In this document: positions 34,143 through 42,026 of the stretch, one piece after another | Layout of the letters: the number at the start of each line of letters is the position of its first letter | Numbering within the stretch: the first letter of the stretch is position 1 | DNA from: Gammaproteobacteria bacterium | GTDB taxonomy: Bacteria > Pseudomonadota > Gammaproteobacteria > Arenicellales > Poriferihabitantaceae | Length of the DNA stretch: 64,000 nt | Reading direction: 5' to 3' | Assembly: GCA_028817405.1 (NCBI GenBank) | Contig: JAPPPS010000006.1 | Span: 1-64,000 of the forward strand | The notes under the pieces: generated by a model | What the model was told of the DNA's origin: nothing | Databases searched by the model: none | The model's input: the letters and a program-made list of their open reading frames with translations, nothing else | Translations under genes and position numbers: made by a program

Positions 34143-34508
34143 TCACGAATCCAGTTGGCGTTCATGCCCGGCAGATTTCAGTTGCGCAAGATAGTCGCGC
34201 CAGTTCTCGGCCTGATTCACGCCGAGCGTATACAGCGTGTCCCACGAATAAATGCCGGTGTCGTGGCCGTCGTCAAACACCGGCTTGATGGCGTAGTTGC
34301 CGACCGGCTCGATGCGCTCGATATTGACCCGCTCCTTGCCGACCTGCAGCACGCCCTGCCCGGGCCCATGCCCCTGCACCTCCGCCGACGGCGAATGCAC
34401 GCGCAAATACTCGCAACTCATCTCAAACGAAGCGCCGTCGTCAAACGCCACGGTCAGCATGCGCGTCTTGCGGTTAAGATTAATTTCGGTTGGGGTGTGT
34501 TTGCTCAT
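34143..34508 (-). CDS. DUF971 (gamma-butyrobetaine hydroxylase-like N-terminal) protein
   Basis: SKHTPTEINLNRKTRMLTVAFDDGASFEMSCEYLRVHSPSAEVQGHG; adjacent to ubiE. Confidence 0.88.
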   Translation of the reverse strand: MSKHTPTEINLNRKTRMLTVAFDDGASFEMSCEYLRVHSPSAEVQGHGPGQGVLQVGKERVNIERIEPVGNYAIKPVFDDGHDTGIYSWDTLYTLGVNQAENWRDYLAQLKSAGHERQLDS

Positions 34509-34512
34509 GGGC
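34461..34512. repeat. direct repeat (copy 1) flanking the Type II R-M locus
   Basis: 52 bp matching 36166-36217 with one mismatch; contains the DUF971 start codon. Confidence 0.9.
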
Positions 34513-34621
34513 GGCATGTTGCTGAAAGGGCGGTTATTTTACGCCAGAAAAACGGCGGCGGCTTGTTTTTTGCTGCGCCGGTTGCCGCGCAACAATGGCC
34601 GGGCGTGTATAATGGCGCGCC

Positions 34622-35437
34622 ATGAACGACCGCATCATTTTTTCGGGGGACTGCCTCGCCGTTACGGGCGGGATGCAGGAAGCGTCGGTAGACCTGTCCG
34701 TGTTCTCGCCGCCCTACGACGGCATTCGGGATTACAAAAAGGGATGGGTTTTTGATTTCCCCGCGCTGGGTAGCCAGCTGTACCGAATCACCAAAGACGG
34801 CGGCGTGTGCGCAGTCGTCATCGGCGACGGCACGCGGGATTTCGCCAAATCGCTGACCACTTTCAAGCTGGCGGTTGACTGGTGCGAAAACGCGGGTTGG
34901 CGGTTGTTTGAAACCTGCGTTTATCACCGGAGCGGCAACCCCGGCGCCTGGTGGAACCGCCGATTCCGGGTTGACCATGAATACATACTGCTGTTTTTCA
35001 AAGGCGCCAAGCCGAAGACTTTCAACAAAAAACCGCTCATGGTGCCGAGCAAACACGCCGGCAAGGTTTATTCGGGCACCGACCGCCTGACGAACGGGGG
35101 CTTCAAGAGAATTCGTCCCAAGGCGGTTAATCCGATGAAATGCAGGGGCACCGTCTGGCAATACAGAACCAGCAACACCGAGCGCAACCGCCTGAAACTC
35201 AAGCATCCCGCGACTTACCCGGACAAATTAGCGGAGGATTTAATCTTGTGCTTTTCCAATCCGGGCGAGATGGTGCTTGACCCGATGTGCGGCAGCGGCA
35301 CCACCTGCGTGATGGCGGTCAGAAACTGCCGCCGGACGATTGGCGTGGAAATCAACGAGGATTACTGCGCGATCGCCGATGAGCGCATTAGAAACGAAAC
35401 CACTCAACAGGGGGTCCTTTTTGAGGATTCGGCGTGA
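34622..35437 (+). CDS. DNA methyltransferase (SPPY motif; m4C or m6A type)
   Basis: FSGDCLAVTGGMQEASVDLSVFSPPYDGIRDY (motif IV SPPY) then C-terminal DPMCGSGTTCVMAV (motif I). Confidence 0.9.
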   Translation: MNDRIIFSGDCLAVTGGMQEASVDLSVFSPPYDGIRDYKKGWVFDFPALGSQLYRITKDGGVCAVVIGDGTRDFAKSLTTFKLAVDWCENAGWRLFETCVYHRSGNPGAWWNRRFRVDHEYILLFFKGAKPKTFNKKPLMVPSKHAGKVYSGTDRLTNGGFKRIRPKAVNPMKCRGTVWQYRTSNTERNRLKLKHPATYPDKLAEDLILCFSNPGEMVLDPMCGSGTTCVMAVRNCRRTIGVEINEDYCAIADERIRNETTQQGVLFEDSA

Positions 35438-35438
35438 A

Positions 35439-36095
35439 ATGAAACAAGGCGGCCATCAACAAGACATGGAAATCATCATCAAAACGCTGAGCGAAATACC
35501 GGCCTACTGGGACGGGAAGCGCGCCGTGCTGGAGTTGAAAGAACATGACCACCAGTGGAAGCAGATGGAGTGGATTGGGTTTTACTTCGAGTATCTGTGC
35601 CAAAAACGCCTGATGAGCGCGGACTTTGAGATACCGGGCGAGAAATACGGCAAGGTCGAATTCGACTCTTTTCGCAGCATCAACTGGGACATGAAAGCAA
35701 GCGCCATTAAGTCGCACAGTCACAAAATCATTTTGAATGACACGCGGGCAATCGATGAAAGCATCGGGAAGCACGGCGCCCACGGCCTGATTTTGGCTTT
35801 GCTGGATGTCGATTACAACGATGTCGACCGCAATTTTCAGAAATGGCATACCGCATTAAAGGGCGGGCAATCGCAATACGAAAAAGACAGAATCGCAAGA
35901 AAAGCGATTTCTCGCTACCGCAAGACAAGCGCCAGCTTGGTCCAGATATTGTTGCTCGTGCTGAACGACAGCAATCGGGAATATCTGGATATTCACAAGC
36001 AAGGCAGAAATTCGGACGGCAGTCCCAGGAACCCAAAATATATGCTCGATATTGAGCGGGCGGATTGTTTCGATGCGCGCGGAATGGATTTTTAA
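35439..36095 (+). CDS. putative Type II restriction endonuclease
   Basis: Immediately downstream of the SPPY methyltransferase; KVEFDSFRSINWDMKASAIKSHSHKIILND is compatible with a PD-(D/E)XK-like site. Confidence 0.65.
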   Translation: MKQGGHQQDMEIIIKTLSEIPAYWDGKRAVLELKEHDHQWKQMEWIGFYFEYLCQKRLMSADFEIPGEKYGKVEFDSFRSINWDMKASAIKSHSHKIILNDTRAIDESIGKHGAHGLILALLDVDYNDVDRNFQKWHTALKGGQSQYEKDRIARKAISRYRKTSASLVQILLLVLNDSNREYLDIHKQGRNSDGSPRNPKYMLDIERADCFDARGMDF

Positions 36096-36099
36096 GCGG

Positions 36100-36172
36100 C
36101 TGCTCGTTACCCCCAGCCACCCCGCAATCTCCTCGGTGCAGTAACTCCGCACCCCATCACAACCGGCGCGTT
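36100..36172 (-). pseudogene. degraded 3'-terminal fragment of hemB
   Basis: Encodes [21 protein letters not shown] versus HemB C-terminus [21 protein letters not shown]; 47/57 nt identity over the core; frame shifted past the hemB stop. Confidence 0.85.
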
Positions 36173-36217
36173 TTGCGGTTAAGATTAATTTCGGTTGGGG
36201 TGTGTTTGCTCATGGGC
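36166..36217 (-). pseudogene. 5'-terminal fragment of DUF971 gene (direct repeat copy 2)
   Basis: 52 bp, 51 identical to 34461-34512; encodes MSKHTPTEINLNRKTR then runs into the hemB fragment. Confidence 0.92.
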
Positions 36218-36263: not shown

Positions 36264-36980
36264 TCACCGCGCCTCGGCGCGACTTAACACTTGGTTGAGT
36301 CCGCGCATATCCAGCCACGGGCGCCGGTAATGCACCATGCGGTGGCAGTTGGAGCACAGCAACGCCAAATCATCCGGCGTGGTTTCCTCCCCCGGTCGCA
36401 GTTCGGACAGCGGCTTGATGTGATGGCATTCAATATAACCGTCGCCGTGCCGCGGATAGCGGTTGGCGAAATCAAAATCGCATGCCTCGCAGTATAACCG
36501 CCCATTGTTCTCGTCTTGAAATTTTTCCTTTTTCAGTCGGACGATGGTTCGGTCGCGCTCCCGGACGGCGTGGACGCGCGTGAGTATCCGACTTTCAACC
36601 ACGCTGTAGTTGTGTTCCATGTCGGTTTCCTCGACTTCCCGAACTTCTTTCGCGGTGGTGCATTTTTTAATGGCTTCGGCGATGCGCGCAATTTCCGCAT
36701 GCGGCTTTTCGCCGAATGCGTTCCACACCTCGCGCGCCCGCTTTGGCTTTGGCGCGCATACATGCTTCTCGTCGAGATGCTTAAATTCCAATACTCGACG
36801 CAACACGCCAACCGGCGGACGGAAACGCTTTGACGGCCCGGCAAGCGCGGCGCGGATGCGCCGCATGGATTCGCTTAACTCGCGTATCGCGCGCGCGTTT
36901 TCTTTCGGCAATCGACCGCGATGCCGCAGATAAACCTCGAGACACAGTATCCACTCGTCTTGGGATAAGCGAAATGCCAT
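36264..36980 (-). CDS. HNH endonuclease (McrA-like), paralog A
   Basis: CEACDFDFANRYPRHGDGYIECHHIKPLSELRPGEETTPDDLALLCSNCHRMVHY. Confidence 0.88.
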   Translation of the reverse strand: MAFRLSQDEWILCLEVYLRHRGRLPKENARAIRELSESMRRIRAALAGPSKRFRPPVGVLRRVLEFKHLDEKHVCAPKPKRAREVWNAFGEKPHAEIARIAEAIKKCTTAKEVREVEETDMEHNYSVVESRILTRVHAVRERDRTIVRLKKEKFQDENNGRLYCEACDFDFANRYPRHGDGYIECHHIKPLSELRPGEETTPDDLALLCSNCHRMVHYRRPWLDMRGLNQVLSRAEAR

Positions 36981-37218
36981 GTGAAAAGTCTCCGGGTATG
37001 CCCTTTCAAATTGCCGCTATTCGACGCGATTCGCTCGCAACGCCAAACCATGCGCTAATGTAGCGTGGGCTGGGCCGCCGCCGCTGGACGCGCGGATTAT
37101 GCCCGGTTATCCAATCGGGCGCAAATAACCGCACGACTCCGTGGAATCGGCATATTGAAAATGCACGCGCCACTAAGTGTGGCGATTTGTCATGAAATAT
37201 CGAATGGCCGCGCATAAT

Positions 37219-38001
37219 TCACCTCGCATCGGCGCGGTTTAGCACTTGCTCAAGTCCGCGCATATCCAGCCACGGTCGCCGGTAATGCACCATGCGGTGG
37301 CAGTTGGAGCACAGCAACGCCAAATCATCCAGCGCGGTTTCCTCACCCGGTCGCAGTTCGGACAGCGGTTTGATGTGATGGCATTCAATATAACCGTCGC
37401 CGTGCCGCGGATAGCGGTTGGCGAAATCAAAATCGCATGCCTCGCAAAACAACCGCCCTTTGTTTTCGTCTTGAAATTTTTCTTTTTTCAATATGACGAT
37501 TCTTTGATTGCGTTCACGGACGGTATGCACGCGAGTGAGGATTTGGCTCTCGACCACATGGTAGTTGTATTCCAAGTGCACGTCTCCGACGGCTTGAACT
37601 TCTTCCGCGACAATGCATTTTTTGATGGCTTCGGCGATTTGCGCGACTGTCGCATGCGGTTTTTCACCCCATACATTCCACACATCACACGCTCGTTTTG
37701 GTTTTTTATCCGCGCATTCCGGGTCGCGGTCGAGATATTGAAACTCCTGCACTCTGCGCAATACACCGTACGGCGGGCGAAAATGTTCCGCGGGCTTGCC
37801 GGCAAGCGCCGCGCGGATGCGCCGCATGGATTCGCTTAACTCATGCATCTCGCGCGAATTGCCTTTCGGCAATCGACCGCGATGCCGCAAATAGACTTCG
37901 AGGCACAATATCCACTCGTCTTGGGAGAGCGGAACATTCTTAGGCGTCGAGTTTGCCTTTGGCGAGCGGTATAAGGCCGGCGGCGAGTTATTCCGAGCCA
38001 T
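37219..38001 (-). CDS. HNH endonuclease (McrA-like), paralog B
   Basis: Same HNH domain as paralog A: CEACDFDFANRYPRHGDGYIECHHIKPLSELRPGEETALDDLALLCSNCHRMVHY; overlaps end of the GmrSD-like gene. Confidence 0.88.
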   Translation of the reverse strand: MARNNSPPALYRSPKANSTPKNVPLSQDEWILCLEVYLRHRGRLPKGNSREMHELSESMRRIRAALAGKPAEHFRPPYGVLRRVQEFQYLDRDPECADKKPKRACDVWNVWGEKPHATVAQIAEAIKKCIVAEEVQAVGDVHLEYNYHVVESQILTRVHTVRERNQRIVILKKEKFQDENKGRLFCEACDFDFANRYPRHGDGYIECHHIKPLSELRPGEETALDDLALLCSNCHRMVHYRRPWLDMRGLEQVLNRADAR

Positions 38002-39730
38002 CGCAAAGCGATTGGATTTTCGCCGCAATCAACTTTGCGCGCGCATGGATAAATTCCCCGTACATATCGCCAAGGGGACGGGCGTTGTCTTTGGTGCAAC
38101 GCATCAGTATGTCCGCCGGAATCAGGTGGGATTCAAGGCGGCGACTGACTTCGCCTTCGGGGTACCGGTGGCGGCTGTTCTTGATTCGGTCGAGCAAGTA
38201 GTCGCCGGGATATTTCGCGCCGACTGTTTTGTCGGTGAAACCGTAAGTCCACATTAAGTTTAACGCCAAGTCGGGGTCTTCGCTTTTGGATTTTGCCGCC
38301 AACAAGGCCTTGGGAAAGATATGATGCTTTTGGCGGGAATCGCAGTTTGACCGAAAATATTTCTCGCCATCGGAAATATCTCGGGCGCCGCCCTGCAAGG
38401 ATGCCACGAGAACGCCTCTCGTGATAACACCAAGAGCGCCTTTGCCGTGATGACGCAAATCGTCCACGGATGGAACGGCGAAGTCATCCTTTGCCGTAAA
38501 AACTTCATCGGCGGGCGGAAAGCGCTTTGCCTTGAACAGCGCTTTCATGCGATGGAAGTCGTCACGCAAACGGTTGTTTGCTTGGCGGCTGTATCGATTG
38601 GTGCAAAAAGCGCGCCAAAGGTAAGCGCGAACAAGGCGCATCGCGCTGTCTCTGTCGCCTCCTCTTTTCGGCATTTCCCGCCACAAAGCGGGGAGCACTC
38701 GAAGGGGAACATGGGTCGGTAAAACTGTTTCGTTGTATATTTTGAGTTCATCGAGAAGGTTGACCGTTCCTTTGACACCGTCGCAGAAAACATACCAATC
38801 TTTTTCCAATCGACGCATGTCCAACTTCATAAAATTGGAAAGAGTCGGGGAAATATCTTGAGTCAGGCAAGCCCATAACAGCGCCATGTCGCCGACACCA
38901 CCGCTTCGAGCGGTTTTATCTTCGAAGGAATCGATTTCAGGAACTTCCTCTCGGATTCGTTCAATGAAGTCGGGCAGTTTTTTGCGCGTCTTGGCTTCAA
39001 ACTGGGCGACCGCTATATCAAAGTGGGACAAAGGCGGCGAGGATGTATTCATCTCGATGAATACATCGATGGCTTCGGATGCGTCGGTGCTTGGCGGCAA
39101 AGGCAAGTAGGGGATGCGTTTGCTGTTTAAAGCCATTCTTGCTTTGATTATGAATGTCATTAATTTGTTGTAGTTGCGCGCAGAAGCATTCTGAGCCCAC
39201 TCCATAAAAGATGCATCATCTTCAGGATTGAGCAGGCGAATGGGGAGTAGACCATTCTTATACTCCTCACTGGGGTTGCCGTAGAACGACTCTTTTTTGG
39301 AGCGCATGGCGACCCCCACATCTTCGTCCTCCAAATCAAGATTGGGCTTGGTGGACGCCAAGGCAAAGTAACCATCTGGATTCTCAACGAACCTGATATA
39401 GTAGGTATCCTTGTCGTAGTTGTCATGGAATGACCGCAACAAAGCGGTTACTCTTTGTTGCCCGTCCAAAAGATACGAAGTGCATTTTTCGGAATCCCTA
39501 TCGAACGCCGGGAATCCACTAATGGGTTTGGTGGCGAACACTTTCTTGCCGGGGGTGTTCTCAAGGACCAGGAGAACTCCCACCGGGCGGGATTTGTAAA
39601 TCAAGGTGGTCAGGAATTTCCTAACCCGCTTGCGGTCCCAGGATTCTTCCCGCTGAAAACTGGGCAGGCGCACCACCCCTCGGATGGTACCGTGGACCCA
39701 GTCCTCGACAGAACGACTCATTGCATCCAT
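37988..39730 (-). CDS. DUF262/DUF1524 (GmrSD-like) protein
   Basis: N-terminal DUF262 with LLDGQQRVTALL; C-terminal HNH-like RQKHHIFPKALL. Confidence 0.88.
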   Translation of the reverse strand: MDAMSRSVEDWVHGTIRGVVRLPSFQREESWDRKRVRKFLTTLIYKSRPVGVLLVLENTPGKKVFATKPISGFPAFDRDSEKCTSYLLDGQQRVTALLRSFHDNYDKDTYYIRFVENPDGYFALASTKPNLDLEDEDVGVAMRSKKESFYGNPSEEYKNGLLPIRLLNPEDDASFMEWAQNASARNYNKLMTFIIKARMALNSKRIPYLPLPPSTDASEAIDVFIEMNTSSPPLSHFDIAVAQFEAKTRKKLPDFIERIREEVPEIDSFEDKTARSGGVGDMALLWACLTQDISPTLSNFMKLDMRRLEKDWYVFCDGVKGTVNLLDELKIYNETVLPTHVPLRVLPALWREMPKRGGDRDSAMRLVRAYLWRAFCTNRYSRQANNRLRDDFHRMKALFKAKRFPPADEVFTAKDDFAVPSVDDLRHHGKGALGVITRGVLVASLQGGARDISDGEKYFRSNCDSRQKHHIFPKALLAAKSKSEDPDLALNLMWTYGFTDKTVGAKYPGDYLLDRIKNSRHRYPEGEVSRRLESHLIPADILMRCTKDNARPLGDMYGEFIHARAKLIAAKIQSLCDGSE

Positions 39731-39844: not shown

Positions 39845-42026
<2,182 letters not shown>

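What the first reader, a model, noticed from the sequence alone, without database searches (positions are those of the whole stretch)
36264..39730. Candidate defense operon: GmrSD-like protein plus two McrA-like HNH nucleases
Three minus-strand genes with overlapping/short spacing: a DUF262-DUF1524 protein (DGQQR and HHIFPK motifs) followed by two paralogous HNH proteins with an unassigned N-terminal domain (LSQDEWILCLEVYLRHRGRLPK). GmrSD enzymes restrict glucosylated-hmC DNA and McrA-type HNH proteins cleave modified DNA. A conserved three-gene association would be a composite modification-dependent system that I do not recognise.
Basis: partly seen in the sequence, partly recalled or inferred. 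Interest (0 to 1): 0.65.

Follow-up and report, generated by a model that had tools for sequence, protein, structure and literature searches.

The report
GmrSD-type enzyme beside duplicated HNH nucleases
This stretch is a small, acquired anti-virus gene island in which a GmrSD/BrxU-type DNA-cutting enzyme sits next to two copies of an unrelated nuclease gene; the three genes do not travel together in other genomes, so it is probably a stack of known kinds of defence genes rather than a new three-part system.

Summary
The three minus-strand genes exist as described. The first (37988-39730) is a GmrSD-superfamily protein: DUF262 with DGQQR, a DUF1524-like HHIFP tail, and BrxU as its only significant structural match. 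HNH1 overlaps its stop by 14 nt; HNH2 is a 79% identical tandem copy.

The proposed conserved three-gene system is not supported. None of 50 related DUF262 loci (14 close) encodes this HNH family. None of 19 full-length HNH loci encodes DUF262; six instead have an adjacent DNA methyltransferase, including the closest relative (75-79%). The HNH N-terminal domain is modelled as all-helical, so it is not EcoKMcrA's NEco domain, and it is a widespread module.

The genes lie in a 5.3-kb island between hemB and a DUF971 gene, which are neighbours in 10 relatives. A 105-bp relic fusing the DUF971 start to a diverged hemB end separates this unit from an adjacent restriction-modification pair, so the two probably arrived separately.

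The DUF262 protein is most likely a DNA-mark-sensing, NTP-dependent nickase. Two homologues sit beside sulfur-transfer genes and this genome carries two dndC genes, hinting at phosphorothioate; glucosyl-hmC specificity has no support. Its metal-binding Asn is Asp (D500), so its nuclease may be altered. Interest is modest.

The parts
37988..39730 (-). DUF262/DUF1524-type protein (GmrSD/BrxU/SspE/DndI superfamily), 580 aa; P23-S-F25-Q26-R27, D89GQQR93, H469-H470-IFP, N491, D500
   Evidence: Pfam GmrSD_N 1.9e-18; profile to BrxU 7p9k E 3.9e-18; Foldseek top hit BrxU E 4.9e-8; motif table
37219..38001 (-). HNH1, 260 aa: helical N-terminal domain plus HNH with CxxC...ECHH...LCSNCH...H; ATG overlaps the DUF262 stop by 14 nt
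   Evidence: Pfam HNH 1.4e-9; A1/A3 alignments; intact motif; model pLDDT 73.8
36264..36980 (-). HNH2, 238 aa, tandem paralogue of HNH1 (79% aa identity)
   Evidence: Pfam HNH 7.9e-11; repeats D2/D4; own-genome search
36113..36217 (-). Relic junction: 52 bp of the DUF971 gene start (98% to 34461-34512) fused, over a few shared bases, to 61 bp of a hemB 3' end (82% to 39850-39910); boundary between the two island units
35439..36095 (+). Putative restriction endonuclease of the neighbouring R-M unit (possible PD-(D/E)XK signature, inferred by eye; no Pfam, PDB, PADLOC or plasmid match)
34622..35437 (+). Beta-class DNA methyltransferase (SPPY motif, probably N4-cytosine), partner of 35439-36095
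   Evidence: Pfam N6_N4_Mtase 1.3e-33; PADLOC oMTase/MTase_II
34143..34517 (-). DUF971 gene (Pfam GBBH-like_N), right-hand flank of the insertion in minus-strand reading order
39845..40915 (-). hemB, the other flank; directly adjacent to the DUF971 gene in 10 relatives

Best explanation
A foreign defence island built in at least two steps between hemB and the DUF971 gene. Unit A holds a single-chain GmrSD-superfamily enzyme and a tandemly duplicated stand-alone HNH nuclease; unit B is a Type II-like R-M pair. The DUF262 domain most likely binds NTP through DGQQR and senses a DNA mark through its N-terminal aromatic patch (P-x-F-Q-R, where SspE and DndI have Y-Q), and NTP hydrolysis gates nicking by the DUF1524 domain. 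The mark is inferred: phosphorothioate is slightly favoured over modified cytosine. HNH1 and HNH2 are most likely separate modification-dependent or R-M-companion endonucleases that bind DNA with a helical N-terminal domain and cut with HNH. The three genes form a local transcription unit, not a conserved system. Shown: gene content, motifs, fold family, inserted state, relic junction, lack of co-occurrence in the sample. Inferred: substrates, NTP gating, defence role, order of events.
For: DUF262: GmrSD_N, BrxU by profile and by fold, QR, DGQQR and FxxxN motifs intact. Island: hemB and DUF971 genes adjacent in 10 relatives versus 5.3 kb apart here; GC 0.54 versus 0.63 for the window; relic 36113-36217 with 8 of 11 hemB differences synonymous, as expected from another lineage's working gene. 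No co-occurrence: 0 of 50 and 0 of 19 loci. Closest HNH relative L004 (75-79%) starts 10 bp from a divergent D12-type methyltransferase, with no DUF262 on its 4.6-kb contig; L030, L031, L101, L102 and L113 also have a nearby methyltransferase. Sulfur link: homologues L032 and L035 sit beside a cysteine desulfurase and a PAPS-reductase-like gene; two dndC genes over the curated cut-off, plus dndD and DGQHR/DndB-like genes, in this genome; dndC in 2 of the 5 class genomes with a DUF262 homologue versus 5 of 274 overall (hypergeometric P 0.003).
Against: The 14-nt overlap of HNH1 with DUF262 suggests coupled translation, and HNH1 keeps an N-terminal extension resembling L004's, so a real pairing in this lineage is possible. 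D500 replaces the metal-binding Asn found in all 14 homologues; N-to-A in the HNH motif abolishes or strongly reduces activity in SspE, DndI and TgvB, so the DUF1524 nuclease may be impaired. The PT-sensing Tyr of SspE/DndI is Phe here and in this whole subfamily. The dndC association drops to P 0.058 without the query genome. Most DUF262 homologues have no sulfur genes nearby. No DUF262 homologue closer than 41% was available, so a recent association could be missed.
Confidence: 0.62

Rival explanations
1. A lineage-specific composite system: the DUF262 protein, with a weakened DUF1524 site (N to D), serves as the NTP-driven mark sensor and hands cutting to the two co-translated HNH nucleases.
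For: 14-nt overlap of DUF262 and HNH1; D500 unique among 14 homologues and K468 in place of the conserved Tyr; intact catalytic motifs in both HNH copies; DUF262 proteins without DUF1524 are paired with a separate predicted nuclease in Menshen (PMC10952713).
Against: No other genome shows the pairing; Asp could still bind metal; the 238-nt gap before HNH2 argues against a tight operon.
Confidence: 0.14
2. The HNH genes are companions of the neighbouring R-M unit, a back-up nuclease as in R-M loci elsewhere, and only happen to abut DUF262.
For: 6 of 19 HNH loci have a nearby methyltransferase, including the closest relative; HNH2 ends 168 bp from the REase gene. PcaRCII (PMC8989522) is an HNH enzyme with a predicted helical DNA-binding N-terminus that restricts 5mC DNA and is silenced by an R-M methyltransferase.
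Against: The relic of DUF971 start plus hemB end lies between HNH2 and the REase gene, which is hard to explain unless the two units arrived separately; 13 of 19 HNH loci have no methyltransferase detected nearby, several being prophage- or integrase-linked.
Confidence: 0.14
3. Classical GmrSD plus two McrA enzymes acting jointly on hydroxymethylated or glucosylated phage DNA.
For: Superfamily membership of the DUF262 protein and HNH similarity to EcoKMcrA.
Against: No conserved association; no NEco-like domain; BrxU, not a glucosyl-hmC-specific GmrSD, is the nearest solved relative.
Confidence: 0.06
4. A decaying, non-functional gene cluster.
For: D500 in the DUF1524 site; relic sequences nearby; incomplete-looking dnd genes elsewhere in the genome.
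Against: All three frames are open with intact HNH motifs in both copies; the 79% identical HNH copies differ with their catalytic and zinc residues kept.
Confidence: 0.04

Closest known systems
BrxU (= PADLOC HEC-05), single-chain GmrSD-family Type IV enzyme, PDB 7p9k/7p9m
   Same: DUF262 plus DUF1524-type layout, DGQQR; best profile and fold match
   Different: Only about 14% identity; (E/D)H motif is HH here; window has D500 for the metal-binding Asn; no BREX or Hma genes recognised beside it
SspE and DndI, PT-sensing DUF262-DUF1524 nickases (PMC9646914, PMC11662687)
   Same: Domain order; DGQQR; P-x-(aromatic)-Q-R patch at matching positions (P23, F25, Q26); two subfamily members lie beside sulfur-transfer genes and this genome has dndC
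   Different: Phe in place of the PT-sensing Tyr; no ssp/dnd genes in the island; PADLOC SspE score is weak (E 1e-4)
EcoKMcrA (PDB 6ghc)
   Same: C-terminal HNH domain (E 2.3e-6 single sequence, 5.8e-9 profile)
   Different: N-terminal domain modelled as all-helical, unlike the beta-sheet NEco domain
PcaRCII HNH endonuclease of Pectobacterium (PMC8989522)
   Same: Described as a small helical N-terminal DNA-binding domain plus HNH; linked to R-M methylation; restricts 5mC DNA
HNH genes beside C5-methyltransferase R-M loci (here L030, L031, L101, L102, L113)
   Same: Same N-terminal plus HNH architecture
   Different: Window copies are tandem and abut DUF262; the nearby methyltransferase is of another class and in a separate unit

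Membership tests
GmrSD superfamily (DUF262-DUF1524) | DUF262 domain with QR, DGQQR and FxxxN motifs | tested here: met
   GmrSD_N 1.9e-18; QR 26-27, DGQQR 89-93, F224-I-E-M-N228
GmrSD superfamily (DUF262-DUF1524) | DUF1524 HNH site (E/D)H...N...N | tested here: inconclusive
   H470 and N491 present; preceding residue is H469; last Asn is D500 here, N in 14 of 14 homologues; Pfam DUF1524 not called
GmrSD superfamily (DUF262-DUF1524) | Cleavage of glucosyl-hmC or other modified-cytosine DNA | not testable with these tools
   needs an assay
SspE/DndI (PT-sensing) | Tyr (Y30/Y25) in the N-terminal hydrophobic patch | tested here: not met
   F25 in the window and F in all aligned homologues that cover the site; Q26 kept (PMC9646914, PMC11662687)
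SspE/DndI (PT-sensing) | Encoded with ssp or dnd modification genes | tested here: inconclusive
   Not in the island; two dndC, a split dndD and a DGQHR/DndB-like gene elsewhere in the genome; two homologues beside sulfur-transfer genes
McrA (EcoKMcrA) | C-terminal HNH nuclease | tested here: met
   6ghc E 2.3e-6 and 5.8e-9; motif intact
McrA (EcoKMcrA) | NEco beta-sheet specificity domain | tested here: not met
   Residues 27-132 modelled all-helical at good confidence; no 6ghc match in the Foldseek rows shown; NEco is a six-stranded sheet
Conserved DUF262-HNH-HNH system | Co-occurrence of the genes in other genomes | tested here: not met
   0 of 50 DUF262 loci and 0 of 19 full-length HNH loci

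The most novel reading that the evidence does not exclude
The DUF262 protein has become a nuclease-weakened, NTP-driven DNA-mark sensor that works through two acquired, co-translated HNH nucleases, tied to the host's phosphorothioate marks: a sensor-plus-separate-cutter version of the SspE/DndI idea found so far in one lineage.
Probability: 0.09. Interest if true: 0.6.

Novelty: new member of a known kind. Interest (0 to 1): 0.3.

Why it matters
It corrects a tempting reading: adjacency and a 14-nt overlap suggested a new three-part restriction system, but the parts are mobile separately. Two leads are worth keeping. The subfamily of DUF262 proteins includes members beside sulfur-transfer genes, which makes a phosphorothioate role testable. 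And the relic junction is a clear footprint of how defence units can stack at one chromosomal site with no integrase gene recognised in the island.

Tried and rejected
Conserved three-gene system: rejected by neighbourhood scans. N-terminal HNH domain as NEco or another solved fold: sequence profile and Foldseek gave no significant match; a ScoMcrA-type sulfur-binding domain was considered from memory and got no support from the PDB profile search. Close viral relatives of HNH2: none by single-sequence search. SspD profile in the own genome: unspecific, it also matches E. coli and other controls, so replaced by the curated dndC model. Identity of the unit B REase: no match in Pfam, PADLOC, PDB or plasmids. 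Promoter and terminator scan: promoters no more than chance, terminator-like sites somewhat above shuffles but scattered, not interpretable. hemB-DUF971 as a general hotspot: 10 relatives are empty there; in others (L055, L056, L058, L064) hemB was not found next to the DUF971 gene. Papers on PADLOC HEC-05 gave only HEC-05 = BrxU.

Full report
Observation. The 580-aa product matches Pfam GmrSD_N (DUF262) at E 1.9e-18 and carries DGQQR at 89-93 and HHIFP at 469-473. Pfam does not call DUF1524; that half is recognised from the motif and from homologues. HNH1 (ATG 38001, 260 aa) overlaps the DUF262 stop by 14 nt; HNH2 (238 aa) follows after 238 nt. The two HNH proteins are 79% identical and their DNA is about 90% identical over 300 bp, so this is a tandem duplication. 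Both keep the full CxxC...ECHH...LCSNCH...H motif.

Setting. hemB, the DUF971 gene and ubiE are consecutive in 10 relatives in which hemB and the DUF971 gene lie on the same fetched stretch, with gaps of at most about 420 bp. In the window hemB and the DUF971 gene are 5.3 kb apart, and the inserted genes have GC 0.54 against 0.63 for the window. The insert has two units: A (DUF262, HNH1, HNH2; minus strand) and B (a beta-class methyltransferase with SPPY and a putative REase; plus strand). Between them, at 36113-36217, lies a relic: the first 52 bp or so of the DUF971 gene (98% identical) joined to a 61-bp hemB 3' end that is only 82% identical to the resident copy. Eight of its eleven differences are synonymous (read from the alignment). 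The simplest account, inferred, is that unit A was inserted first and that DNA from another lineage (hemB tail, unit B, DUF971 gene) was then joined to the resident DUF971 gene by microhomology and homologous recombination. It implies that units A and B arrived separately.

DUF262 protein. A profile of seven homologues finds BrxU (7p9k) at E 3.9e-18, and the predicted structure (pLDDT 69, moderate) has BrxU as its only significant Foldseek hits (E 4.9e-8). PADLOC's best model is HEC-05, which is BrxU (PMC11411939). SspE and DndI sense phosphorothioate through Tyr-Gln in the N-terminal patch (PMC9646914, PMC11662687); the window and its homologues have Phe-Gln at the matching site. The third HNH residue is His or Asn in known enzymes, and replacing an HNH-motif Asn by Ala abolished or strongly reduced activity in SspE, DndI and TgvB; it is Asp500 here and Asn in all 14 homologues.

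Phosphorothioate lead. Homologues L032 (41%) and L035 sit in a shared module: GHKL ATPase and a second protein (PADLOC PDC-M33A/B for the L032 copies), a third unknown, a PAPS-reductase-like protein, a cysteine desulfurase (SspA/DndA) and DUF262. The window's own genome has two dndC genes above the curated cut-off, a dndD in two ORFs and a DGQHR/DndB-like gene. In 274 class genomes, dndC occurs in 5 and the DUF262 homologue in 5, with 2 shared (P 0.003); without the query genome P is 0.058. This is suggestive only.

HNH proteins. The N-terminal domain recurs as RDELILALDLY...FRNPNGV..KL.NF in many HNH proteins of bacteria and prophages. It has no Pfam family. The model (pLDDT mostly 74-96 over residues 21-130) is all-helical there with no significant PDB match; NEco of EcoKMcrA is a beta-sheet domain. 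Of 19 loci with the full architecture, six have a nearby methyltransferase gene, and the closest relative, L004 (75-79%), starts 10 bp from a divergent D12-type methyltransferase next to a gene resembling an HNH-type REase. Others stand alone in prophages or near integrases. An HNH enzyme described in similar terms, PcaRCII, restricts 5mC DNA (PMC8989522), but homology could not be tested.

Association test. Profiles of both families were run over all fetched loci. None of 50 DUF262 loci (14 close) has a gene of this HNH family, and none of 19 HNH loci has DUF262. Limits: some loci end at contig edges, some are near-duplicates, methyltransferases were sought with three seeds and motifs only, and no DUF262 homologue above 41% identity was found in the sampled genomes.

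Verdict. A real but mostly ordinary defence island: one GmrSD-superfamily enzyme of an under-studied subfamily and a duplicated stand-alone HNH nuclease, next to a separately acquired R-M pair. The three-gene system is not supported. A sensor-plus-cutter pairing in this lineage alone remains possible because of the gene overlap and D500.

Noticed in passing
window 36113-36217: Chimeric relic joining the DUF971 gene start to a diverged hemB 3' end; looks like a microhomology joint left by stacking of two insertions.
   Followed up: yes
L032 179-8125 and L035 27-8247: Conserved module of GHKL ATPase, two unknown proteins, PAPS-reductase-like protein, cysteine desulfurase and DUF262: a possible unrecognised phosphorothioate-type defence system.
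   Followed up: partly
L168 405-5045 and L169 9886-13526 (own genome): Two dndC genes; one has an in-frame TGA and is followed by a dndD in two ORFs, the other is followed by an unknown ORF and a DGQHR/DndB-like gene. Intactness unclear.
   Followed up: partly
window 34622-36095: Methyltransferase (probable m4C) with an adjacent putative REase that has no match in Pfam, PADLOC, PDB or plasmid records.
   Followed up: partly
window 40842-42026 (-): Adenylate kinase with a long Lys/Ala/Pro-rich, histone H1-like C-terminal tail.
   Followed up: no
L004 1-4595: 4.6-kb contig whose ends overlap by about 99 bp (98 identical), so possibly circular, carrying an R-M pair and this HNH gene.
   Followed up: partly
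L113 4167-6771: C5 methyltransferase followed by two tandem HNH genes, the second with a different N-terminal domain; L110 also has an HNH tandem.
   Followed up: no
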